Assembly: GCF_004116495.1 (NCBI RefSeq)
Contig: NZ_PDKC01000001.1
Location: 186,001 to 250,000, forward strand
Reading direction: 5' to 3'
DNA from: Arcobacter sp. CECT 8985
GTDB lineage: Bacteria > Campylobacterota > Campylobacteria > Campylobacterales > Arcobacteraceae
Length of the DNA: 64,000 bases
This document shows positions 49,976-64,000 of this stretch, one piece after another. The notes under the pieces were generated by a model. The model saw only the letters and a program-made list of their open reading frames with translations. It searched no databases and was not told the origin of the DNA. How positions within the stretch are numbered: position 1 is the stretch's first letter; each line of letters opens with the position of its first letter. Position numbers and translations under genes: made by a program.

Positions 49976-52213
49976 TTATCTCCTTACTGTTCGATAAATT
50001 TCGGATGGATGCATTTTTATATCTGTTTCATTTCTAATTTTTAAAAACTCTTCTTCTGATATTTTTTTGATATTTGCTATAGTCATTTTTAAAGGGTTCA
50101 TCCCAGATAAGGGATCTTTATCTTCTGCATTTACCAATTCATTACCATCTGCTTCAGCATAATGAAAAGTTGTAAAAATTGTGCCATGTCTTAAATCAGG
50201 ATTTATATTAATTTTTGCAGCAATTTTTCCTCTTTTATTTTCAACTAATGCATAACATCCTTCATCTAATTTACGTTCTCTTGCAATATCTTCACTTACT
50301 TCTATTGCAGGTCCCATTATGTCAGAGCCCAATTCTAAAGGTTTACACTCTCTTGTCATTGTTCCTGTATGATAATGATAAACTTTTCTTCCAGTTGTAA
50401 AAAGGCAAGGGTATAACTCATTTACCTCTTCACTTACTGAACCTGAACCAATAGGATAATCATTTGGTATATCAAATTTATGTAAAAACTCTTTTTCCAA
50501 TTCAGTTCTTTTATTTTTATCTTTTGAATAAATTACAGGTACAAGTCTAAATTTACCATCTGGTAACATAGATTTATTATCTTCATATAAAACAGGTGTT
50601 CCTTTATGTTCTAATGTTGGGCAAGGCCAACTTACTCCATCATTTTTAAGCATTTTTTCGTAAGACATACCCCCATAAAAATTTGGATTAACTTCTCTGA
50701 TCTCATTCCAAACATCTTCTGCAGTTTCAAAATCAAAACCTTTTAATCCAATTTTTTTGGCAATATTTGCAATAACTTTCCAATCTGAAGATAATCCAGC
50801 TGCTGGTTCTACTGCTTTTTTTACTACTTGTACTCTTCTTGAAGTATTTATGAAAGTCCCATCTTTTTCTCCCCAAGATGCAGCAGGTAAAACTAAATCA
50901 GCTTTTTGTGCAGTTTCTGTTAGAAATATATCTTGAACAATAAAAGTATCTAAATGTTCCACAGCTTCAACAAAATGTTCTGTCCAAGGATCACTCATCA
51001 CTGGGTTTTCACCAAATACATATAAAAATTTAAGTTTTTCTTCTTCTATTTTTGTAGGAGCTTGTGTTAAAGGAAATCCAATTTTATCACTAATTTCATA
51101 TCCCCATATATCTTTTATATGTTCTCTAACTTCAGTATTTGTAACTGAACCATTAGGTACAACATTAGGCAATGCACCCATATCACAAGCACCTTGTACA
51201 TTATTTTGTCCTCTTAAAGGATTAATTCCTGCACCTTTTTTACCAATATTTCCAGTTATAAGTGCTAAGTTTGAAAGTGAAAAGATATTAGAAGTTCCAT
51301 CAATAAATTGAGTCATTCCCATCGTATAACATATTGCTGCAGCACCTGCTTTTGCATATTCTCGTGCAGCTTCTTTTACTAGTTCTTCTGAGATACCAGT
51401 TTCATCTTCTACTCTTTTAGGAGTAAACTCTTTAACTGCTTGTTTTAAATACTCAAATCCTAATGTATATTTTTCAACAAAATCACTATCATATAATTTT
51501 TCTTGAATAATATAATTTATCATTGCATTTAAAAAAGGTATGTTATATCCAACTGGTGTTTGAATATATATGTCAGCTTTTTTAGCCATATCAGTTTTTT
51601 TAGGATCAACTACAATTAATTTAGCACCTCGGTCTATCCCTCTTAACATCTGCATTGCGATAATTGGGTGGCACTCACTTGTATTTGTTCCTATCAAAAA
51701 CAAAACGTCACTATGTGTTGCAAATTCGACTAAATCATTAGTCATTGTTCCATTTCCAAGTGTTTTAGTCAGACCGACTACTGTTGGACCATGTCAAAGT
51801 CTTGCACAATGATCTATATTATTTGTTCCTAACACTCTAAAAAATTTTTGAAAGATATAATTATCTTCATTTGTACATCTTGCAGATGAGAACCCCATCA
51901 TACTATCTACGCCATATTTTTCTACTGTTGATTTAATTCTTGAAGATATAAAATCATATGCTTCTTCAAAACTCACTTCAACAAGTCTTCCTTTTTTCGA
52001 AAATTTATTATTTTCTTTTCTAAGTAATGGTTTAGTTAATCTTCTAGGTGAGTGAATAAACTCCCAACCATAAAGACCTTTTAAACAAAGTTCTCCGTCA
52101 TTAACATGATGTCCCTTTGTAGGAGTTGCTTTTTTGACTTTATTATTTTCAACATGCAAATCAATATTACAACCTGTACCACAATAAGGACATGTAGTCT
52201 GAATTTTTTTCAT
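49976..52213 (-). CDS. fdhF: Selenocysteine formate dehydrogenase H, proximal copy (FdhF)
   Basis: One 745-residue gene through a TGA at 51794-51796 (residue 140) in the context HCARL-Sec-HGPTVVGLTKT. The N-terminal [4Fe-4S] ligands are Cys8, 11, 15 and Cys43. A SECIS hairpin follows the TGA. It is clearly a paralogue of the distal fdhF (similar along its length but differing at many positions), so both are probably functional. First gene of the operon, so its level should equal or exceed all others. It oxidises formate for the HyfA-linked hydrogenase. Confidence 0.95.
51756..51787 (-). promoter_or_regulatory. SECIS element of the proximal fdhF
   Basis: On the minus strand CCAA/TTGG close an outer stem and AGTC/GACT an upper stem with apical loop GGTCT. 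The upper stem differs from the distal copy by compensating changes, which supports a conserved structure. Confidence 0.87.
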
Positions 52214-54076: not shown

Positions 54077-55084
54077 TTAAATCCAACAAATTTTTGAAGT
54101 ATCAATTTTTACATTTGTTATAACACCAGGAAAAAGTTCACTTTTTTTAATATCATCTTTTGATAATTTTGTATTAAAACTTATTCCTCCAATTACAAAC
54201 TCTACTTGCATTTTATCTTCTAAAGGATCTTTATAAATTGAAGATATCAATACTTTTAAATTACATTCATTATCTTTACAATTAAGATGAATATCTTTTG
54301 AATTAATCATAACTATAGAATCTTTTTTCTTAGAGGAACTATTTTTTATAGTTAATTTTTGTCCATCGATAAACTCTTTAACTAAATTTGCATTATCATC
54401 TTTTTGCCAAGGAGGAAATAGTAAATTTATACTTCCACTTTCAACTAAGTTTCCTTGAAAAAGTGCAATTTTTTTATCGCAAGTATGATTAAGCCAATTA
54501 TGATCATGACTAGAAATAATTAATGTAGTATCCCATTTTTGCTTAGCTAAAAATACAGCTTCTTTTATAAGTTGTGCAGAGTTTGTATCTACTCCGGATG
54601 TAGGTTCATCCAAAATCAAGACTTTTGGTTTTAAAATCAACCTCGCTGCAAGGGCAACTCTTTGTGCTTCCCCTCCTGAAAGCTGATTATATTTCCTATT
54701 TTTAAAAGACTCATTTAAACCAACATAAGATAAAGCTTCATTTACTCTTTGATCTAAATTTTTAGAATCTTTTCTTAACTTTAATCCAAAAATAATATTT
54801 TCATAAACACTTTTTTTAAGTAAATATGGATTTTGAGGAAGTATAACTACATCTTGTTTTGTCTTATGTTCTAACTTTTTACTCAAAACAGAATTAAAAT
54901 ATATATTTCCACTACTTGGTTTATTTACAAAAGATAAAATAGAAAAAAGTGTAGATTTTCCACTTCCATTTGGTCCAAATACACCGATGATTTGTTTATC
55001 ATCTAATATTAATTTATCTATATTTAAAACTTTTTTATCTTCATGAAAATATGTAATATTTTCAAGTTCAAAAAGATGATTCAT
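54077..55084 (-). CDS. tupC: Tungstate ABC transporter ATP-binding protein
   Basis: 335 aa from the ATG at 55084, which forms TAATG with the tupB stop; a start 9 nt earlier is possible but would sit too close to the GGAA ribosome binding site. Walker A is GPNGSGKST, the signature is LSGGEAQRV and Walker B LILDEP. A C-terminal TOBE-like anion-binding domain (about residues 250-335) is present as in ModC/TupC. It powers uptake of tungstate for the nearby formate dehydrogenases. Confidence 0.9.
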   Translation of the reverse strand: MNHLFELENITYFHEDKKVLNIDKLILDDKQIIGVFGPNGSGKSTLFSILSFVNKPSSGNIYFNSVLSKKLEHKTKQDVVILPQNPYLLKKSVYENIIFGLKLRKDSKNLDQRVNEALSYVGLNESFKNRKYNQLSGGEAQRVALAARLILKPKVLILDEPTSGVDTNSAQLIKEAVFLAKQKWDTTLIISSHDHNWLNHTCDKKIALFQGNLVESGSINLLFPPWQKDDNANLVKEFIDGQKLTIKNSSSKKKDSIVMINSKDIHLNCKDNECNLKVLISSIYKDPLEDKMQVEFVIGGISFNTKLSKDDIKKSELFPGVITNVKIDTSKICWI

Positions 55085-55776
55085 TATGTCCATTTCCTTT
55101 TCAATATAGATAAAACAATATTAACACTTAATGCAATTGTAAAAAGAACTAATCCTAAAGCAATTCCAGTTACAAATTCGCCTTTACCTGTTTCAAGTGC
55201 AATTGCTGTTGTAATTGTTCTTGTATGATACTTGATATTTCCACCAACCATCATTGAAATTCCAATTTCAGTTACAATTCTTCCATAAGCAGTCATTGCA
55301 GCTGTCATAAGACCAAATCTTGCTTCAACTAATGTTGTTATTAAAATCTGTTTTTTATTTGCGCCTAAACCTTTTAGTGATACATACAATCTTTTATCAA
55401 TAGATTCAACTTGAGTTGCAGTAAGAGCTATAACAATAGGAGTTCCCAATACAATTTGTCCAATAATAATAGCTTTTTGACTAAAAAGTAAATCAAAGGA
55501 ACCAAAAAAACCACTTCTTGATAATATAGTATATGCTATTAGACCTATTACTACTGTTGGTAAAGCTAAAAGTGTATCAACTACGGTTCTTATTACAGGT
55601 TTACTAGGGAAGTTATAATACCCTAGTAAAAAGCCCAATGGCAGTCCTATTAATAAACTAATAAATAAAGACCATGATGAAACTGTAACTGTTACTGCAA
55701 TTGCAGAATAAACACTGTCATTTCCAGAAACTAAAAGTTGCAGTGCTTCATTAAAACCATCAATAAAAAGACTCAT
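55084..55776 (-). CDS. tupB: Tungstate ABC transporter permease
   Basis: 230 aa, about five membrane helices. The cytoplasmic EAA-like loop ISKRLYVSLKGLGANKKQILITTLVEARFG (about residues 127-156) contacts TupC. Members of the same layout lie between a TupA binding protein and a TupC ATPase. Confidence 0.92.
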   Translation of the reverse strand: MSLFIDGFNEALQLLVSGNDSVYSAIAVTVTVSSWSLFISLLIGLPLGFLLGYYNFPSKPVIRTVVDTLLALPTVVIGLIAYTILSRSGFFGSFDLLFSQKAIIIGQIVLGTPIVIALTATQVESIDKRLYVSLKGLGANKKQILITTLVEARFGLMTAAMTAYGRIVTEIGISMMVGGNIKYHTRTITTAIALETGKGEFVTGIALGLVLFTIALSVNIVLSILKRKWT

Positions 55777-55801
55777 CCTGTAAATTTCCTTGTTTTAAAA
55801 C

Positions 55802-56617
55802 TTATTTATTTGCATTTGGTACAAATAAAGCTTTTCCTAATAATCTAAAATCACCAATAATTTTTTGTGTAGAGTCTTTTACAATCCATTTTGTAAATTG
55901 TTTTGCTAATTTTGGTTGAACTTTTGAACATTTTTCTTTATTGATTGTAATTACACTATATTGATTAAATAAAGATTTATCACCCTCAACTACAATTTTC
56001 ATAGTATTTTTATCACCTTTTTGTGATTGATACTTAATCCAAGTACCTCTATCAGTCATTGTATATCCATTTTTTTCAGCTGCCATGTTAATAGTTCTTA
56101 ACATACCTTGACCTGTTTGAACATACCAAGATGCTTTTTCAGGTGCTTTAGCCATTGCTTTTTTCCATAAACTAATCTCTTTTTTATTAGTTCCTGAATT
56201 ATCACCTCTACTAAAAAAGTTTGATTTATTCTCTTTAATTTTTTCTAATGCTTTACTTGGAGCAAGTCCTGCTACATGTGCTGGATCTTTTTTAGGTCCA
56301 ATAATAACAAAGTCATTATACATAACTTGTTCTCTATCAACACCGTATCCAGTTGCTACAAATTTCTTCTCACTTGCTGGTGCATGTACAAAAAGAATAT
56401 CAACATCACAATTACTACCCATTTTAAGTGCTTTTCCTGTTCCTGTTGCAACCCATTTTAATGTAGTTCCTGTATCTTTTTTGAATATTGGTGCTAAATA
56501 GTCTAATAACCCAGTGTTATCAGTACTAGTTGTTGTCGCCATCATTAAGTCTTTTGCCATTAACGAACTTGTTGCTACTGCTGCTGCTAAAACTGTTGAT
56601 AATAAAATTTTCTTCAT
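55802..56617 (-). CDS. tupA: Tungstate-binding periplasmic protein
   Basis: 271 aa with a Sec signal peptide (ILLSTVLAAAVATSSLMA). The oxyanion-binding TTTS motif (MMATTTSTDNTG, residues 26-37) identifies the TupA family rather than ModA. It delivers tungstate, and less well molybdate, to TupB. It lies 14 bp downstream of moeA. Confidence 0.94.
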   Translation of the reverse strand: MKKILLSTVLAAAVATSSLMAKDLMMATTTSTDNTGLLDYLAPIFKKDTGTTLKWVATGTGKALKMGSNCDVDILFVHAPASEKKFVATGYGVDREQVMYNDFVIIGPKKDPAHVAGLAPSKALEKIKENKSNFFSRGDNSGTNKKEISLWKKAMAKAPEKASWYVQTGQGMLRTINMAAEKNGYTMTDRGTWIKYQSQKGDKNTMKIVVEGDKSLFNQYSVITINKEKCSKVQPKLAKQFTKWIVKDSTQKIIGDFRLLGKALFVPNANK

Positions 56618-56631
56618 TTATTTTCCTTTTA

Positions 56632-57879
56632 TTAATTTAAAATATTTATTTGTTTATCTAAAAATTTGTTATTAAATCTAATAACACCTACTTCTTGATC
56701 TACAGCGATATTACTTGTATCATTATTTGTAACTAATAATGAATTACTTTCATAAAGTGCTGTAATCATTCCTGATCCATATTTGTTATTTCTTGTAACT
56801 ATAAAACCTCCATTTTCACAAGATCCAAGCACTACATTTACTCTTCCTTGTTTTGTTTTAAATTCTTTTATATTCTTAACTTTTTCAATATCATGATAAA
56901 AACTATTGTTACCTTGTAGTTTTTTTAATACAGGGATAACAAATAAATGTGCATTAACCATAGCAGTTAATGGATTACCAGGTAAAGAAACAACTACTGT
57001 ATTTTGCATTTTTCCCATCATAATAGGACGACCTGGTTTAATATTTACTCCATGGAAAGCCGTTTTTAAACCATTAGATAAAAAAGCTTCTGCCATAAAA
57101 TCAGCATCACCCATTGAAATACCACCACTTGTTATTACAACATCGTAATTTTTTAGATTTGAAATAAACTCTTTTGATTTTTCCAAATCATCAGGAATAA
57201 CACCACTATATGTAGCATTAAAACCATTCTCTTTTAAAAGTGATACTAAAGCATAAGAGTTACAATTGTATATCTCATCTTCATTTGAATTTTCCCAAGG
57301 TTCTTTTAACTCATCACCCGTAGATAAAACAGCAATTGAAATATCTTTATATACTTCAACCATTACAATACCTTGAGAAGCTAATAGTGTTATTGTTGAT
57401 GAGTTAATAGCTTCACCTTTTTTTAAAAGAATATTTCCTTTTTTTTGTTCTTCACCTTTTACTCTTAGGTTACTTCCTTTTTTTATATTAGTTGGAAGAG
57501 TTACATTCATATCTGTAACATTACTACAATTTTCTATTGGAATAATTGTATCTGCATCAGCTGGTACTTGTGCACCTGTCATTATTTTATAACATTCACC
57601 ATCCTTTAAATCTGCTTTTACTTTATCATCTTTATCACCAGCATAAATAACTCTTTTTATATTTAAAGTTTTTCCAGAATCTTCACTTTTAAAAGCAAAC
57701 CCATCCATAGCAGAGTTATTAAAAGATGGTAAATTTTTTGTACAAATAATATCTTGAGCTATTACTTTACCTAAAGCATCTAACAATGAAACTTTGTGTG
57801 TTAAAGTAGTAGCATTTGCTAATTCAAAACTTTTAATTACTGCTTCATTAAAATCCAAATATGTTAATTTATTGCTCAT
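56632..57879 (-). CDS. moeA: Molybdopterin molybdenumtransferase MoeA
   Basis: 415 aa. MoeA signatures are FNNSAMDGFAFKSED, ITSGGISMGDADFMAEAF and SLPGNPLTAMVNAHLF, in the right order. It inserts Mo or W into adenylylated molybdopterin. Context with tungstate uptake and FdhD suggests the product is used by formate dehydrogenases. It overlaps the NifS-like gene by 11 nt. Confidence 0.95.
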   Translation of the reverse strand: MSNKLTYLDFNEAVIKSFELANATTLTHKVSLLDALGKVIAQDIICTKNLPSFNNSAMDGFAFKSEDSGKTLNIKRVIYAGDKDDKVKADLKDGECYKIMTGAQVPADADTIIPIENCSNVTDMNVTLPTNIKKGSNLRVKGEEQKKGNILLKKGEAINSSTITLLASQGIVMVEVYKDISIAVLSTGDELKEPWENSNEDEIYNCNSYALVSLLKENGFNATYSGVIPDDLEKSKEFISNLKNYDVVITSGGISMGDADFMAEAFLSNGLKTAFHGVNIKPGRPIMMGKMQNTVVVSLPGNPLTAMVNAHLFVIPVLKKLQGNNSFYHDIEKVKNIKEFKTKQGRVNVVLGSCENGGFIVTRNNKYGSGMITALYESNSLLVTNNDTSNIAVDQEVGVIRFNNKFLDKQINILN

Positions 57880-58849
57880 TTAATACCTTTATTTGTCTAT
57901 ATTTTTTATGTAATAATTCAACAATTTTTTCTATTTCTTCATTAGAGTACTCTTCACAAAAAGATAAAGAAATAGCATTTCTACTAGTTAATTCATCATA
58001 TCCCATAGATTGAATAATTCTTGAAGGTTTAGATAAACCTAAAGAGCACCCTTCTCCATTTGTAATTAAAATATTAGATAAAGCAGATGTACGTATAAGT
58101 TCTCTTGCTTTGATATTTTTTAAAGCAAAATGTAAAGAATAGTCTAAAGTAGAAGAAGGTTCTACAAAAAAATAAATATCATCTTTAAACTTCTGTTTTA
58201 ATTTTTCAAGAAAAAGTTTTTTATTTGAAGTATTAAAAGTTTGATTTTTTAAACCTTCAAATGATAAATATACACTAAGAGCATCACAATTTGCTAAGTT
58301 TTGTTCTTCAAATTCACCATTATGTAAAACAATAGCACTACTTGTATATCCGCTTAATTTATAACAATCAAAAATTGCAATATCACAAATTTCATCATAA
58401 TTTGCACTTGAATTTGAAATTATCTTAGCATTAGTTAACTCTTTTATTTTTTTAAGATTCGTCTTAACAAAAGTATCCATTGTATATGAAGAGATAAATA
58501 TAAAATCTAATTTTTGATCTTTTAATTTTTCAAAATTTACTGTTCCATTTTTATTTAACTCAATCCATAAAACTTCAAAACCTAACTTTTCATATTGTTT
58601 TGCAGCATCCACGATTGATTGACTTTCACCTTTACTAACTGCAATTTTTCCATCCAGTTCAAGCATTAAACCTAAAACTCCATATTTACTAAAATCGATT
58701 GTTTTTAAATCAGTAAAATTATACTTTTTTAAAAAAACTTTTTTTAATAAAGTAAAAGAATCATTATTATCTAAGATACTTAATGAATAATCAGTTGTAA
58801 TATGTATATCTTGCACATTTGGATACAATAAAAAATTCAATTTAAACAT
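57869..58849 (-). CDS. Divergent NifS/IscS-like PLP protein
   Basis: 326 aa, shorter than IscS (about 400). The C-terminal part contains an IscS-like catalytic loop NGEGCSLGLSKPSRIIQSMG (Cys268) and Lys164 sits in YKLSGYTSSA, where the PLP lysine would be; the usual His before it is Tyr. The N-terminal substrate segment is shortened and the PLP-stacking His is not evident. It may be a dedicated sulfur donor to FdhD (which needs persulfide from a cysteine desulfurase) or a degenerate paralogue. It shares one nt with modE. Confidence 0.75.
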   Translation of the reverse strand: MFKLNFLLYPNVQDIHITTDYSLSILDNNDSFTLLKKVFLKKYNFTDLKTIDFSKYGVLGLMLELDGKIAVSKGESQSIVDAAKQYEKLGFEVLWIELNKNGTVNFEKLKDQKLDFIFISSYTMDTFVKTNLKKIKELTNAKIISNSSANYDEICDIAIFDCYKLSGYTSSAIVLHNGEFEEQNLANCDALSVYLSFEGLKNQTFNTSNKKLFLEKLKQKFKDDIYFFVEPSSTLDYSLHFALKNIKARELIRTSALSNILITNGEGCSLGLSKPSRIIQSMGYDELTSRNAISLSFCEEYSNEEIEKIVELLHKKYRQIKVLNEQ

Positions 58850-59220
58850 TATTTATCCTCCTTTGGATTGAGAATTTCTTCTCCACCTTTAACAAAAAGC
58901 TCTTTATATCTATCTTCTGCATATTTTTTTATATCATGTTCTAATATTTTATAAGTTTGAATAACTTCTCTTGCTTTGGGAGTAAGACTAGTTCCACTAT
59001 TCTCACCTCTACCTTTAAACGTCATTACAAGATCTTCTTCAATAAACTTTTCCAATATTTTTATATGGCTCCAGGCTTTTTTATAATTCATTCCTACTTC
59101 TTTTGCAGCTTCTGCTATAGATCCAGTTCTGTCAACGTTTTCTAGAACTTCAGTCTTCCCACTACCAAAAATTAGATTTTGGTCATCATCTTCTATCCAA
59201 ACCTTAACTTTTACTTTCAT
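58849..59220 (-). CDS. ModE-like winged-helix regulator
   Basis: 123 aa with the ModE N-terminal LysR-type HTH: TGSIAEAAKEVGMNYKKAWSHIKILEKF at about residues 32-59, and RGENSGTSLTPKAREVI. The Mop/TOBE oxyanion-binding domains are missing, so it must be a short ModE form. It likely regulates Mo/W genes in this cluster. Confidence 0.88.
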   Translation of the reverse strand: MKVKVKVWIEDDDQNLIFGSGKTEVLENVDRTGSIAEAAKEVGMNYKKAWSHIKILEKFIEEDLVMTFKGRGENSGTSLTPKAREVIQTYKILEHDIKKYAEDRYKELFVKGGEEILNPKEDK

Positions 59221-59632
59221 GCTTGCCCTTCCTTTTTCTAAAACATCCCAATTGACAATGAGTAACTTCTATATCAGAATTTACAACTGTAGAACCAACT
59301 GTTCTTAAAGTAGATTGTTGTGCCTCATTCCATAACACTTTACACTCTAATTCTTTATTCCCCAAATAATTTTGTTTTATTCTATTATAAACTTCAATAT
59401 TTGGGTCATTAAATTTAATTTTTCCAAAAACTCCTAATTCGCAATTAGTAATTTTTATACCTAAACTTTTAGTAATTGCAGACATTTCATGTGGCTTTTT
59501 ACCTATAAGTCGTGCAACTTTAAAAGCCTTTAAACAAGATAATTTACCTTCAGCATCTAAATTTGTTAAAATTAAATCTTTTTGTATATTATCAAGTTTA
59601 ATATCCATATCATCATCTATACTAGACATCAA
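59204..59632 (-). CDS. Unknown protein with a duplicated CxLGxF motif
   Basis: 142 aa, not recognised. Two similar units occur: IKITNCELGVFGKIK and IEVTHCQLGCFRKRK, about 60 residues apart, suggesting an internal repeat with Cys that might bind metal or persulfide. No signal peptide or helix. It lies between fdhD (11-nt overlap) and modE (17-nt overlap), so it is tightly tied to formate dehydrogenase cofactor biology. Confidence 0.7.
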   Translation of the reverse strand: MMSSIDDDMDIKLDNIQKDLILTNLDAEGKLSCLKAFKVARLIGKKPHEMSAITKSLGIKITNCELGVFGKIKFNDPNIEVYNRIKQNYLGNKELECKVLWNEAQQSTLRTVGSTVVNSDIEVTHCQLGCFRKRKGKHESKS

Positions 59633-60410
59633 TTCTTCCTTGATGAGTATAAATATTCATTCTTTTGCCTCTTGCAAAACCTATTAATGTAACTCCATGC
59701 TTATGAGCTGTTTGTACTCCAAGATATGTTGGTGCTGTTCTTGAAACTACAATAGGGACTTTGTGCATTACAGCTTTTGTTACCATTTCTGAAGATAATC
59801 TACCACTTACAAATAAAACAGATTTTGAAGTATCTAAACCTTTAATTTTACATTTACCTACTACTTTGTCAATAGCATTATGTCTACCAATATCTTCTGA
59901 TGTTACAGTAGTACCATCTGGTAAATATATCATTGCTTTATGAACACATCCTGTTAATTTATATAATTCACTCTCTTCATAAAATTTTTTTACTTCAGTA
60001 GAGATTGTTTCTGGTTTTACTTGAAATGCTATTTGGTTAAATGGCACTTCAACATTTCCTTCTACATTTCCAGTAACTCCACCACCACAGCCACTAACTA
60101 AAGTTTTTTCTGTATATAAATTTTCTAAAGAATCTTCATTTATTTTTGCAGTTATATCAACTCTCAATCCATCTTCGCTGATATGAAATTCTTCAATATC
60201 ATCAATACTTGAAATTACATTTTCACTCATTAAAAAACCAACTGCATGTGCATCTTGGTCTATAGGAATACACATCATTGAAATTGCTTTTTCACCATTT
60301 AAATAGAGATTTAACCTTGCTTCTTCAATAGTTACATCTTCAAACTCAACTGAGCTCTCACCTGATACTTTTTCAATAATTACTTTTTTTAAATATTTTT
60401 CGTTTCCCAT
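59622..60410 (-). CDS. fdhD: FdhD sulfurtransferase for formate dehydrogenase
   Basis: 262 aa from the ATG at 60410; an upstream ATG at 60452 would leave only 2 bp to the terminator hairpin at 60455-60490 and lacks a ribosome binding site. LVSGCGGGVTG places the reactive Cys; only the first of the two Cys of the E. coli CxxC is present. EDIGRHNAIDKVVGK, SGRLSSEMVTKA and VVSRTAPTYLGVQTAHKHGVTL are FdhD signatures. It passes sulfur from a cysteine desulfurase to the Mo/W-bis-MGD of formate dehydrogenase. Confidence 0.93.
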   Translation of the reverse strand: MGNEKYLKKVIIEKVSGESSVEFEDVTIEEARLNLYLNGEKAISMMCIPIDQDAHAVGFLMSENVISSIDDIEEFHISEDGLRVDITAKINEDSLENLYTEKTLVSGCGGGVTGNVEGNVEVPFNQIAFQVKPETISTEVKKFYEESELYKLTGCVHKAMIYLPDGTTVTSEDIGRHNAIDKVVGKCKIKGLDTSKSVLFVSGRLSSEMVTKAVMHKVPIVVSRTAPTYLGVQTAHKHGVTLIGFARGKRMNIYTHQGRIDV

Positions 60411-60454
60411 TCCCAACTTCTTTAATGTGTATTTAATGCATATTTCTAGCATTT

Positions 60455-60494: not shown

Positions 60495-61394
60495 TTATAA
60501 TTCTTTTTTATCTTTTAATTTTTTATAATAAGTACTATGAAGGATTTCAACTTCTTCTTCTTCTTTATAACCAGTTATCATACTGTGAATTGCACCTTTA
60601 ATTGCAAATACAGACATATAAATATGTGTCATAAATAGTGCAGCTACTGCCATTCCTAAAACATTATGCACTATTGCACTTGCTCTTAGTAGGTCAATTT
60701 GTGATAATCCTAATGATACAACAATATCAAGTTTAAAATCTTGAAAATACATAATTGCACCTGTTATTATCATAAATATCCCACCTAAAGTACAAATCCA
60801 GAACCACATTTTTTGTCCTGCGTTAAATTTACCAGCTGGAATTGGGTCTTTTCTTTTGTTTAAATAACCCCCTAATATCATCATCCATTTGATATCATCA
60901 CTTGTTGGAAGCATTTCTTTAAACCACATGATTAACATAGGTAATACAGAAACTGCAAAAAACGGAGTTGCGATTGCATGAAGTTCTTTACAAACTCTTA
61001 CAAATTCTCCTCCACCAAAAAATGTTCCAAATACCATAACAAAACCTGTTGGTATTAAAACAATAAATGAAAATCCAGCTAACCAGTGGATAAATCTATG
61101 AAATATTGTGAATACGTGTATCTTTTTTCTATCATGTGAAAAAATCATTGGTCCTATAATTAAATAGTGAACTAAAAAAACTGCTGGAACTCCAAAGGCA
61201 ATGGCTAAAAATGCCATTGTAAAATATTTACCTTGTAAAATAGTAAACCATTGTCCTAAATGTAAAGAGCCCTGTTTATCATATGCTAATATATTTGGTA
61301 TTAAATCTTTTCCAAATATTGCACTTGATTCATCAGCAGCGAATGCTACTGATGATAATACGAATATCAAAATTAGTAAATATTTTTTCATCAT
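60495..61394 (-). CDS. fdhC: Formate dehydrogenase cytochrome b subunit
   Basis: 299 aa from the ATG at 61394 (GAGG five to eight nt upstream); a longer start at 61427 would be inside fdhB without ribosome binding site. Signal-like helix (YLLILIFVLSSVAFA), then four core helices as in FdnI. Haem b His candidates are in IFHRFIHWLAG, CKELHAIATP and IVHNVLGMA/MTHIYMSVF. It passes electrons from periplasmic FdhAB to quinone. Longer than E. coli FdnI (217 aa) by an N-terminal periplasmic segment. Confidence 0.9.
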   Translation of the reverse strand: MMKKYLLILIFVLSSVAFAADESSAIFGKDLIPNILAYDKQGSLHLGQWFTILQGKYFTMAFLAIAFGVPAVFLVHYLIIGPMIFSHDRKKIHVFTIFHRFIHWLAGFSFIVLIPTGFVMVFGTFFGGGEFVRVCKELHAIATPFFAVSVLPMLIMWFKEMLPTSDDIKWMMILGGYLNKRKDPIPAGKFNAGQKMWFWICTLGGIFMIITGAIMYFQDFKLDIVVSLGLSQIDLLRASAIVHNVLGMAVAALFMTHIYMSVFAIKGAIHSMITGYKEEEEVEILHSTYYKKLKDKKEL

Positions 61395-61399
61395 ATACC

Positions 61400-62011
61400 T
61401 CACTTTGCCCCGTAGGCAGTATCCCAAGTCATTGGAGCTGTTTGTACGCCATGACCTCTTGATAAAACTCTTTCTCTATATATTTTACTAACTTCTTGAG
61501 ATTCACCAACTAAAAGTGCTTTAGTTGAACACATAGCTGCACATACAGGAACTTTTCCTTCAGCTATTCTATTTTGTCCATAAAGTTCTCTTTCATGTTC
61601 GCTATTTGTTTCTAATGGACCACCTGCACACATTGTACATTTATCCATTGCACCTTTTGTTCCAAAAGCACCATCTCTAGGGAACTGTGGTGCTCCAAAA
61701 GGACAAGCATATAAACAATATGCACAACCAATACATTTATCTTTATCATGAAGAACAATCCCATCTTCTCTAATATAGAAACAATCTACTGGACATACCT
61801 GTTCGCAAGGTGCATCTGTACAATGCATACAAGCTATTGATAAAGAGTATTCTAATCCTTCTTTACCTTCATTAATTGTGATTACTTTTCTTCTATTAAT
61901 CCCAGATGGAAGTTCATGAGCTTCTGCACAAGCTACTGAACAACCATCACATTCAATACATCTACCTTCATCACAATAAAATTTCATTCTTGATAATTCT
62001 GAACTACTCAT
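61400..62011 (-). CDS. fdhB: Formate dehydrogenase iron-sulfur subunit
   Basis: 203 aa with four [4Fe-4S] Cys sets: CDEGRCIECDGCSVACAE, CMHCTDAPCEQVCP, CIGCAYCLYACP and CTMCAGG...CAAMCS. It lacks the C-terminal membrane helix of E. coli FdnH, typical of the short FdhB. It passes electrons from FdhA to FdhC. Its stop sits in the fdhC ribosome binding site. Confidence 0.93.
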   Translation of the reverse strand: MSSSELSRMKFYCDEGRCIECDGCSVACAEAHELPSGINRRKVITINEGKEGLEYSLSIACMHCTDAPCEQVCPVDCFYIREDGIVLHDKDKCIGCAYCLYACPFGAPQFPRDGAFGTKGAMDKCTMCAGGPLETNSEHERELYGQNRIAEGKVPVCAAMCSTKALLVGESQEVSKIYRERVLSRGHGVQTAPMTWDTAYGAK

Positions 62012-62020
62012 AATAACCTC

Positions 62021-64000
62021 CTACGCTCTTTCTACTCGGCATAATCCACCTTTTGTTTCTGGTATTTGTGTAATAATGTCATAACCATAGTTTGTAACAG
62101 TATTTGCACTTTCACCAACCGCATAAGGTTTAGTTCCTTTAGGATATTTGTGTGAATAATCCTCACCTTGGAAATGTCCAGCAAAATGGAATGGTAACCA
62201 TACTCTATCAGGGCTAACTGAATATGAATATTTTGCTTTTACTTTAATTTTTGTTCCTTCAGGTGAATGAATCCATACCATATCTCCATCTCTTACGCCT
62301 AATTTACCTGCTAAGTCTGGATTTATATCACAGAACATCTCAGGGCTTAATGCTGCTAGATATTTAGAAGCTCTATTCTCCATACCCGCACCATTTAGGT
62401 TTACAAGTCTTCCAGTTACCAAGTTAATTGGGAACTCTTTTGACCAATCTTTTTGAGATTGTTTACTCATATATTGAGTATCAACTCTATAATGATCTGG
62501 TTTGTTTGCATATGTTGGATATTTTTTAACTAAATCAAATCTTGGAGAGTGTAAAGGCTCTCTATGCATTGGTATTTGATCAGGGAATGTCCATACTCTT
62601 GCTCTTGCTCTTGCATTTCCGTAAGGTGCAATCCCTGCTTCCATACATTTTTCAGCAATAATATTTGAAGTATCAACTTTCCAGTTTTTACCAATTCTTT
62701 TTTTCTCATCTTCAGTTAATTTAATTCCTAAAACTTCTTCAATATTATCTCTTGTAATTTCAGGATATCCACCATTTACTTTAGAATCTTTTGGTGCACT
62801 TCCAGCTGCTGCTAATTGTGAAACACCTTCATGTTCTAAACCAAATCTATTTCTAAATCCCATACCTCCATCTTTAACACTTAAATTAGTGTTATATAGA
62901 AGCGGACTTCCTCCATGTTTTTCTGTCCAACAAGGCCAAGGTAAACCATAATATTCACCTTTCATTTCACCATAACCTCTTAGAGTTACTTGATCAAACA
63001 TATGCCAATTTTCATTATGTTTTTTTAATCTTTCTGGTGTCCAACCTGTTAAACCAATTGTTTTAATAGTTCTAGCAATTTCTCTTGTAGCATCTTCAGG
63101 CCATTTGAAATTACCTTTTTCATCTTTCATTGCTGCAACATATTGATCATAAAAACCTAATCTTTTTGAAAGTTCAAATAAAACTTCTTGATCTGGTTTT
63201 GATTCATATAATGGCTCAACTACTTGAGTTCTCCATTGAACTGATCTATTTGTAGCAGTAACTGAACCACTTGTTTCAAATTGTGTTGCTGCTGGTATAA
63301 TAAATACATCATCTTGTTTATCTGTTAAAATTGCCGCTTCGTTTACAAAAGGATCAGATAACACTAGCAATTCTAAATTGTCTAAACCTTCTTTAATTTT
63401 TGCTTGTTGTGCAACAGAAGTAACTCCATTACCCATAACAAAAAGTGCTTTTAGATTTGTTTTACCATTATGAGATTTATCATTTCCACCTTTGCCATCT
63501 AATACTCCAGCCCACCATCTAGCAAGTGTGAATCCTTTTTTATTCATCCACTCAGGAGCTTGGAATTGTCTAGTTAACCAACCATAGTCAACTTTCCATT
63601 GTTGTGCAAAATATTTCCATGAACCATCACTTAATCCATAATAACCTGGTAATGTATGTGATAAACAACACATATCTGTAGCACCTTGAACATTATCGTG
63701 CCCTCTTAAGATATTTGTTCCACCACCTGCTCTACCCATATTTCCAAGAGCTAATTGTACAATTGGAGCTAATCTTGTATTAGAACTTCCTATTGTGTGT
63801 TGTGTTAAACCCATTGCCCAAATTAATGTACCTGGAGAATTTTTAGCATATAAAGTTGTGATTTGAATTAATTTTTCAGCTGGTACGCCTGTAATGTCTG
63901 CAACTTTTTCAGGAGTCCATTTTTTTGCTTCTTCTTTAATTAAATCCATTCCATAAACTCTATCGTTTATGAACTTATCATCATGCCAACCATTTTTAAA
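62021..64000 (-). CDS. fdhA: Formate dehydrogenase catalytic subunit, partial (5' end beyond right edge)
   Basis: The frame stays open from 64000 to the stop at 62021 (659 codons visible, beginning FKNGWHDDKFINDRVYG); the first third, holding the Fe-S ligands and the Sec or Cys site, is outside. Visible motifs are WAMGLTQHTIGSSN, NILRGHDNVQGATDMC, LFVMGNGVTSVAQ and the C-terminal molybdopterin-binding LVTGRLVNLNGAGMENR and VWLPFHFAGHF. It is the respiratory FdnG/FdhA type, acting in the periplasm. Whether it too carries Sec cannot be seen here. Confidence 0.94.
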   Translation of the reverse strand, partial: FKNGWHDDKFINDRVYGMDLIKEEAKKWTPEKVADITGVPAEKLIQITTLYAKNSPGTLIWAMGLTQHTIGSSNTRLAPIVQLALGNMGRAGGGTNILRGHDNVQGATDMCCLSHTLPGYYGLSDGSWKYFAQQWKVDYGWLTRQFQAPEWMNKKGFTLARWWAGVLDGKGGNDKSHNGKTNLKALFVMGNGVTSVAQQAKIKEGLDNLELLVLSDPFVNEAAILTDKQDDVFIIPAATQFETSGSVTATNRSVQWRTQVVEPLYESKPDQEVLFELSKRLGFYDQYVAAMKDEKGNFKWPEDATREIARTIKTIGLTGWTPERLKKHNENWHMFDQVTLRGYGEMKGEYYGLPWPCWTEKHGGSPLLYNTNLSVKDGGMGFRNRFGLEHEGVSQLAAAGSAPKDSKVNGGYPEITRDNIEEVLGIKLTEDEKKRIGKNWKVDTSNIIAEKCMEAGIAPYGNARARARVWTFPDQIPMHREPLHSPRFDLVKKYPTYANKPDHYRVDTQYMSKQSQKDWSKEFPINLVTGRLVNLNGAGMENRASKYLAALSPEMFCDINPDLAGKLGVRDGDMVWIHSPEGTKIKVKAKYSYSVSPDRVWLPFHFAGHFQGEDYSHKYPKGTKPYAVGESANTVTNYGYDIITQIPETKGGLCRVERA

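What the first reader, a model, noticed from the sequence alone, without database searches (positions are those of the whole stretch)
57869..58849. NifS-like protein dedicated to formate dehydrogenase sulfuration?
FdhD normally receives sulfur from IscS. Here a short, divergent NifS-like gene sits in the fdhD-modE-moeA-tup operon with an IscS-like Cys loop, but with changed PLP-pocket residues. It may be a specialised partner of FdhD or of the cofactor.
Basis: partly seen in the sequence, partly recalled or inferred. Interest (0 to 1): 0.52.

Follow-up and report, generated by a model that had tools for sequence, protein, structure and literature searches.

The report
Degenerate NifS dedicated to formate dehydrogenase
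Many relatives of Campylobacter and Helicobacter carry, beside their formate-oxidising enzyme genes, a relative of the protein that extracts sulfur from cysteine; it has lost key parts of its catalytic pocket but always keeps the sulfur-carrying cysteine, so it probably hands on sulfur instead of extracting it.

Summary
Window 57869-58849(-) encodes a 326-aa NifS/IscS-fold protein ("NifSx") packed between modE and moeA in the fdhABCD-ORF142-modE-NifSx-moeA-tupABC cluster. It belongs to a conserved family confined, in what I could search, to some Campylobacterota families (97 of 397 genomes at E<=1e-10). The family tracks formate dehydrogenase: 94 of those 97 genomes have FdhD. It occurs only with one FdhD lineage (0 of 95 FdhD+ genomes in other families have it). 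It persists in two genomes without SelA whose FDH is a full-length, Sec-free frame. FdhD splits once along NifSx presence, whereas a species marker rejects that grouping. The model is a confident NifS fold with a mobile Cys loop. The loop cysteine (C268) is present in 102 of 102 distinct sequences, but the PLP-site residues have decayed differently in each lineage: Arcobacteraceae keep Lys and lost His, Asp and Gln; the Helicobacteraceae-like family kept His and Asp and lost Lys. Most likely it is not a canonical cysteine desulfurase but a NifS-derived persulfide carrier or adaptor serving FdhD. The FDH link is well supported; the chemistry is inferred. Closest precedent: the Lys-less IscS of Archaeoglobus fulgidus.

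The parts
57869..58849 (-). NifSx, 326-aa degenerate NifS/IscS-fold protein
   Evidence: ORF; family in 74 of 104 same-family genomes; AF2 pLDDT 92.1, pTM 0.90; best VIA Z 28.1 to IscS 4hvk
58046..58048 (-). codon of C268, the persulfide-loop cysteine
   Evidence: Cys in 102 of 102 distinct family sequences; residues 268-270 pLDDT<50, a mobile loop
58358..58360 (-). codon of K164, aligned with the PLP Schiff-base Lys of NifS
   Evidence: hhalign to NifS K205; K in 82 of 83 f1-type and 2 of 2 f7b sequences, 0 of 16 f2, 0 of 1 f6
58412..58414 (-). codon of N146, at the position of the PLP-ring Asp
   Evidence: N in 82 of 83 f1-type, D/E in 16 of 16 f2; mapping through A4
58622..58624 (-). codon of S76, at the position of the catalytic His
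   Evidence: S/T/C in 83 of 83 f1-type, H in 15 of 16 f2; alignments
58849..59220 (-). ModE-type HTH protein (split form)
   Evidence: NCBIfam TIGR00637 73 bits, below its cut-off of 98.5; aligns with the C-terminal half of long ModE in NifSx- families
59204..59632 (-). ORF142, detached N-terminal domain of the long Campylobacterota ModE; invariant cysteines
   Evidence: E 4.7e-22 to 3.8e-13 to the N-terminal halves of 237-270 aa ModE proteins; conservation
59622..60452 (-). FdhD, loop SGCGGGVTGN
   Evidence: NCBIfam NF001943 304.9 bits, above cut-off; loop comparison
56632..57879 (-). MoeA, one of three copies in the genome
   Evidence: Pfam MoeA_N/MoCF_biosynth/MoeA_C; own-genome search
54077..56617 (-). 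tupA, tupB, tupC, tungstate transporter
   Evidence: NCBIfam best hits NF041772, NF041773, NF041774, each below its curated cut-off
60495..63949 (-). fdhC, fdhB, and part of fdhA of the respiratory formate dehydrogenase
   Evidence: ORFs; same order in relatives; named by position and recalled similarity, no family model run on these three

Best explanation
NifSx is an accessory protein for maturing formate dehydrogenase. It descends from a NifS/IscS cysteine desulfurase, has given up canonical PLP chemistry, and works through the mobile loop cysteine C268 as a persulfide carrier or docking partner. A housekeeping desulfurase (NifS or SufS type, both present in the genome) loads C268, and NifSx passes the sulfur to FdhD of the 'SGCGGGV / SGCCVGV' lineage, which sulfurates the Mo/W-bis-MGD cofactor. 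Shown here: fold, universal cysteine, decay of the PLP site, and tight linkage to FDH/FdhD. Inferred: loading by a housekeeping desulfurase, direct contact with FdhD, and transfer to the cofactor.
For: Synteny: in 39 of 40 Arcobacteraceae loci laid out, fdhD lies upstream on the same strand; the fortieth, L055, ends a few hundred bases upstream at the contig end. All five f7 loci have NifSx after fdhD, directly in four. The simplest cassette is fdhABCD-ORF142-NifSx without modE or moeA (L062; L250). Profile: of 397 genomes, 97 have NifSx (E<=1e-10) and 94 of these have FdhD; FdhD+ genomes of f1/f2/f6/f7 have it in 94 of 96, those of other families in 0 of 95. FdhD splits by one branch (SH-aLRT 100) along NifSx presence, while LepA rejects that grouping (p-AU 3e-47). 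NifSx splits by FdhD subtype: 15 of 17 CC-type partners form a 100/99 clade with three CG rows, which are copies lying after tupC. Independent of Sec: G084 and G030 have no SelA hit and encode 932-933 aa FdhA without a stop, yet keep NifSx. Chemistry: Cys 102 of 102; the His, Asp and Lys sites are never all canonical in any clade tallied. Cys loop mobile. Structural nearest neighbour is the Lys-less A. fulgidus IscS, though ranks within one Z unit are tied.
Against: Window-type proteins keep K164 (82 of 83), which a pure carrier would not need. Two FdhD+ f2 genomes (G231, G325) lack NifSx at the selAB locus, so it is not always required. Two NifSx+ genomes (G162, G167) have no FdhD hit, and the divergent f6 copy (G419) lies among flagellar and phage-like genes. 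In f2 the gene sits in a selA-selB-NifSx-moeA operon, as a rule not beside fdhD, so Sec or Moco steps are equally near. Synteny and co-inheritance concern the whole fdh operon, so they do not single out FdhD as the partner. No interaction was modelled.
Confidence: 0.5

Rival explanations
1. A still active but unconventional PLP enzyme (cysteine or selenocysteine lyase) specialised for FDH, using K164 with replaced helper residues; only the Helicobacteraceae-like branch became a PLP-less relic.
For: K164 in 82 of 83 f1-type sequences and in both f7b ones; invariant D125, H240, K247, R249 and R253 in f1-type could form a new pocket; closed NifS fold.
Against: The position of the Asp that pairs with the PLP ring is Asn in 82 of 83, the catalytic His is Ser/Thr/Cys in 83 of 83, the Gln is Ala/Ser/Val/Phe in 83 of 83. 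The f2 branch, same family at hhalign E 1.7e-39, does without the Lys.
Confidence: 0.2
2. A selenium-handling protein: the loop Cys carries selenide or perselenide towards selenophosphate or Sec synthesis for the Sec-containing FDH.
For: 13 of 14 f2 loci have selA- and selB-sized ORFs upstream (identity by NCBIfam for L154 and L155); 95 of 97 NifSx+ genomes have SelA; the fold is also that of selenocysteine lyase.
Against: Kept in two SelA- genomes with Sec-free FdhA (G084, G030). Absent in SelA+ FdhD- genomes whose selA loci I opened (G149, G274, G414). Absent (E<=1e-10) from all f3 genomes with SelA and FdhD.
Confidence: 0.15
3. A non-catalytic partner of the housekeeping NifS or of MoeA: a mixed-dimer subunit or scaffold that recruits desulfurase or W/Mo-cofactor to FdhD, the Cys being a ligand rather than a sulfur carrier, as proposed for A. 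fulgidus IscS.
For: moeA follows NifSx in most f1 and in 12 of 14 f2 loci; precedent of Lys-less IscS giving a Cys ligand (PMC7585200 passages).
Against: Cassettes without moeA next to NifSx exist (L062, L080, L169, L171, L172). No test of dimerisation was possible.
Confidence: 0.12

Closest known systems
IscS/NifS cysteine desulfurases (class V aminotransferase fold)
   Same: Whole fold over 293-321 residues of each chain shown, Z 23-28; mobile C-terminal Cys loop; K164 at the Schiff-base position
   Different: 326 against about 400 aa; the His, Asp and Gln of the PLP site replaced; far under every curated family cut-off
IscS of Archaeoglobus fulgidus (4hvk, 4r5f)
   Same: NifS fold with a defective PLP site and a kept loop Cys; top structural match; described as lacking desulfurase activity and giving a Cys ligand (PMC7585200, passages read)
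   Different: Works with IscU in Fe-S assembly; NifSx is tied to FDH and keeps the Lys in the window lineage
NifS4 of Rhodobacter capsulatus (XdhC partner)
   Same: A desulfurase assigned to a molybdenum-cofactor chaperone (PMC10609526 and PMC6239281 passages)
   Different: Active desulfurase, for xanthine dehydrogenase, not FDH
E. coli IscS-FdhD sulfur relay
   Same: A desulfurase-fold protein working with FdhD on bis-MGD is the role proposed here (PMC6239281, PMC10609526 passages)
   Different: IscS is a general active desulfurase and E. coli FdhD has CXXC; the FdhD here has SGCGGG or SGCCVG

Membership tests
Cysteine desulfurase (IscS/NifS) | Class V aminotransferase / NifS fold | tested here: met
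   AF2 pLDDT 92.1; Foldseek best E 1.3e-18; VIA Z 28.1 over 313 residues at 3.0 A
Cysteine desulfurase (IscS/NifS) | Schiff-base lysine | tested here: inconclusive
   Met in the window protein (K164) and in 82 of 83 f1-type and 2 of 2 f7b, but 0 of 16 f2 and 0 of 1 f6
Cysteine desulfurase (IscS/NifS) | Catalytic His (E. coli His104), ring Asp (Asp180) and Gln (Gln183) | tested here: not met
   Window S76, N146, A149 at those positions
Cysteine desulfurase (IscS/NifS) | Persulfide-forming loop cysteine | tested here: met
   C268, 102 of 102 sequences
Cysteine desulfurase (IscS/NifS) | Score over the curated family cut-off | tested here: not met
   40.9 bits against 643.2 (TIGR02006); 36.4 against 530.75 (TIGR03402)
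Cysteine desulfurase (IscS/NifS) | Desulfurase activity with L-cysteine | not testable with these tools
   needs purified protein
FDH maturation factors | Genetic linkage to fdh genes and presence with FDH | tested here: met
   39 of 40 loci laid out; 94 of 97 genomes
FDH maturation factors | Requirement for FDH activity | not testable with these tools
   needs a knockout
Selenocysteine pathway proteins | Confined to Sec-encoding genomes | tested here: not met
   G084 and G030: no SelA hit, NifSx present

The most novel reading that the evidence does not exclude
A NifS fold has been turned, with stepwise and lineage-specific loss of its PLP site, into a PLP-independent persulfide shuttle reserved for the formate dehydrogenase cofactor: a pseudo-desulfurase that answers how FdhD proteins without the CXXC motif receive sulfur in about half of the FDH-bearing Campylobacterota sampled.
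Probability: 0.35. Interest if true: 0.72.

Novelty: new variant of a known kind. Interest (0 to 1): 0.58.

Why it matters
FDH needs a sulfido ligand on its metal, and how sulfur reaches it is settled only for E. coli-like systems. The authors of PMC6239281 found that CXXC is not conserved in FdhD and wrote that where it is absent the sulfur path and the desulfurase involved may differ (passages and one section read). NifSx is a concrete, widely conserved candidate for such a path. It also gives a natural series (Lys kept with His/Asp lost; Lys lost with His/Asp kept; natural losses of the gene) for dissecting which part of a desulfurase matters to a sulfur acceptor.

Tried and rejected
Chance or spurious ORF: rejected (dN/dS, family). 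Plain NifS/IscS member: rejected (cut-offs, residues). Sec-only role: weakened by G084 and G030. 'NifSx makes up for missing CXXC in FdhD': not discriminating, because the FdhDs of NifSx- families also lack CXXC (SGCG[RKS]). NifSx presence as mere species phylogeny: rejected with LepA. A NifSx-MoeA fusion hinted at by 740-aa 'open frames' (G031, G055, G067): ORFs are separate and one search gives 325 aa for G031; not pursued further. Rows dropped: 35 of the 132 genome hits (E 1e-10 to 1e-3) were left out of the counts, as they are short N-terminal matches in mostly about 400-aa frames, probably ordinary NifS. Only 40 loci out of the 74 hit genomes were laid out for synteny, picked for diversity of genus. 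The CC/CG subtype test used 46 rows; L055 was dropped because its FdhD is off the contig.

No relative was found in plasmid records (tblastn) or viral contigs. A first scan of bacterial and archaeal contigs with the single protein found nothing; the alignment scan gave 43 loci, by title mostly Arcobacteraceae or other Campylobacterota MAGs, one labelled Pseudomonadaceae. It uses two short patterns and would miss divergent relatives. No search outside the phylum with the profile was possible, so absence elsewhere is not shown. Promoter and terminator scan: about as many sites as shuffles, uninformative. ORF142 fold: middling model (pLDDT 73.1), not searched.

Literature: ten searches (two searches found none). 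I read passages only of PMC4607533, PMC10609526, PMC12140954, PMC5322559, PMC7585200, PMC6682613 and PMC4585668, and passages plus one section of PMC6239281; none of what I read describes this gene.

Full report
Observation. The window lies on contig C11 of a 2.79-Mb genome. By the titles of related named contigs (Malaciobacter, Poseidonibacter, Arcobacter, Aliarcobacter) it is an Arcobacteraceae genome. ORF 57869-58849(-) encodes 326 aa. Upstream lie FdhD, a 142-aa ORF and ModE, downstream MoeA and TupABC, all on the minus strand and tightly packed. Against family libraries the protein is a remote NifS/IscS relative, well under the curated cut-offs; each of the 35 members of alignment A1 matches at least one cysteine desulfurase model at E<=1e-3. 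dN/dS against two congeners is about 0.2.

Family and distribution. I call it NifSx. In the window's own taxonomic family (f1) 74 of 104 genomes have it. FdhD occurs in 191 of the 397. Of the 97 NifSx+ genomes 94 have FdhD; the exceptions are G085 (contig end just upstream), G162 and G167. Of 96 FdhD+ genomes in f1/f2/f6/f7, 94 have NifSx (not G231 and G325); of 95 FdhD+ genomes in all other families, none has. All seven f1 genomes of the set without NifSx at that cut lack FdhD. These counts were made by hand from the listed rows.

SelA. 95 of 97 NifSx+ genomes have SelA; G084 and G030 do not. In both, fdhA is one open frame of 932-933 aa rather than being interrupted at the Sec codon position, and NifSx follows fdhD-ORF142. 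Conversely the f2 genomes G149 and G274 and the f7 genome G414 have SelA, lack FdhD and have no NifSx by their selA gene. So NifSx follows FDH more closely than it follows Sec.

Gene order. In 40 f1 loci laid out (of 74 genomes, chosen for diversity), 39 have fdhD upstream on the same strand and L055 is cut by the contig end. In 38 NifSx follows fdhD within three genes; in L081 it lies after tupC. Two loci (L057, L058) have a second copy after tupC. f7 loci have fdhA-B-C-D-NifSx, one of five with ORF142 and modE between. In f2, 13 of 14 loci show selA-sized and selB-sized ORFs followed by NifSx (with fdhD-modE between in L155); identity was confirmed by NCBIfam for L154 and L155. moeA follows in 12 of 14. 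In the FdhD+ NifSx- genome G231 the order is selA-selB-moeA with a full NifS upstream of selA: a natural loss of NifSx alone.

FdhD partner lineage. FdhD of NifSx+ families carries the loop SGCGGG(V/I) or (S/T)GCC(V/I)GV, that of NifSx- families SGCG(R/K/S); the split is complete in the sequences compared. The two '+' type FdhDs of G231 and G325 come from genomes in which NifSx was not found. In a tree of 75 FdhDs (55 and 20) the two sets are the two sides of one branch, SH-aLRT 100. A species marker, LepA, from 28 genomes does not group the NifSx+ families (3 changes; p-AU 3e-47 against one clade; some LepA rows were trimmed at an inner Met). Within NifSx, 15 of 17 proteins with CC-type FdhD fall into one clade (100/99) together with three CG-labelled rows, and these three are the copies after tupC; the other two CC rows are the distant f7 pair; genera g2, g10 and g27 hold both types. 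This shows co-inheritance of NifSx with the fdh operon type; it does not by itself prove contact with FdhD.

Anatomy and chemistry. The AlphaFold2 model from window and named relatives has pLDDT 92.1, pTM 0.90; the only stretch under 50 is 268-270, the Cys loop. Foldseek and VIA-align give NifS, IscS, NFS1 and selenocysteine lyase, top Z 28.1 with A. fulgidus IscS. Mapping by profile alignment to the housekeeping NifS (A3): K164 at the Schiff-base Lys; S76 at the catalytic His; N146 at the ring Asp; A149 at the Gln. The A1-A3 alignment is modest (E 1e-7, probability 94%) and the Asp/Gln mapping leans on A4 as intermediate (A1-A4 E 1.7e-39; A4-A3 E 8e-4, probability only 25%). Across 102 distinct sequences: C268 102 of 102; P275 and S276 102 of 102; R290 101 of 102; Lys 84 of 102 (absent from f2 and f6, Arg in one f1-type row); His only in f2 (15 of 16); Asp/Glu only in f2 (16 of 16) and f7b (2 of 2). 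No clade keeps the His, Asp and Lys positions together. The canonical mechanism (recalled: Lys forms the aldimine, Asp protonates the pyridine N, His is acid-base, Cys attacks) therefore looks broken in each lineage by different losses, while the sulfur-carrying Cys is under absolute constraint. Residue roles and E. coli numbers are recalled.

Interpretation. The simplest reading is a pseudo-desulfurase: a persulfide carrier or docking subunit for FDH cofactor sulfuration, loaded by a housekeeping desulfurase. The genome has a NifS over the NifS-family cut-off and another full class V protein of SufS-like sequence (L001; SufS-like by my reading of the sequence, no family scan). Precedents: A. 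fulgidus IscS lacks the Lys and has been described as supplying a Cys ligand without desulfurase activity (passages of PMC7585200); NifS4 of R. capsulatus is assigned to a Moco chaperone. FdhD receives sulfur from IscS in E. coli, and the literature states that FdhDs without CXXC may use a different path. Retention of K164 in the window lineage keeps the active-enzyme rival alive, and selAB synteny in f2 keeps a selenium role alive.

Novelty. The fold and the idea of a dedicated desulfurase are known; a conserved family with this pattern of PLP-site decay tied to one FdhD lineage was not described in anything I read from the ten literature searches, which cover only open-licence PMC papers. 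I rate it a new variant of a known kind.

Noticed in passing
59204-59632 (-): ORF142 has no Pfam hit but is the detached N-terminal domain of the long (237-270 aa) ModE found after fdhD in NifSx- families; it has invariant cysteines and looks like a twofold helix-helix-strand repeat (pLDDT 73). It stays with fdhD and NifSx in loci lacking modE (e.g. L062, L064, L075, L076, L080, L250), so it may do more than regulate.
   Followed up: partly
51794-51796 (-): In-frame TGA in CARL-U-HGPT of a second formate dehydrogenase (49976-52213): a likely selenocysteine codon that splits the ORF in two.
   Followed up: partly
G000 C11:243370, C55:52955, C8:46995: Three moeA genes in the genome; the one in this window sits with tupABC and may be specific to tungsten.
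   Followed up: no
L057:4968-5984, L058:10886-11863, L081:6650-7651: NifSx copies after tupC that belong to the CC-FdhD clade although the local FdhD is CG-type: relics of, or replacements from, another fdh cassette.
   Followed up: partly
L252 (G231): Full-length NifS directly upstream of selA-selB-moeA in the f2 genome that lost NifSx: a possible functional replacement.
   Followed up: no
L251 (G167), L257 (G162): Two f2 genomes keep NifSx without an FdhD hit and away from selAB: either recent FDH loss or another use of the protein.
   Followed up: partly
L170/L259 (G419): A 268-aa divergent NifSx homologue (90 bits) in f6 near a flagellar FlgD-like gene and a phage-type primase, not in an fdh operon.
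   Followed up: no
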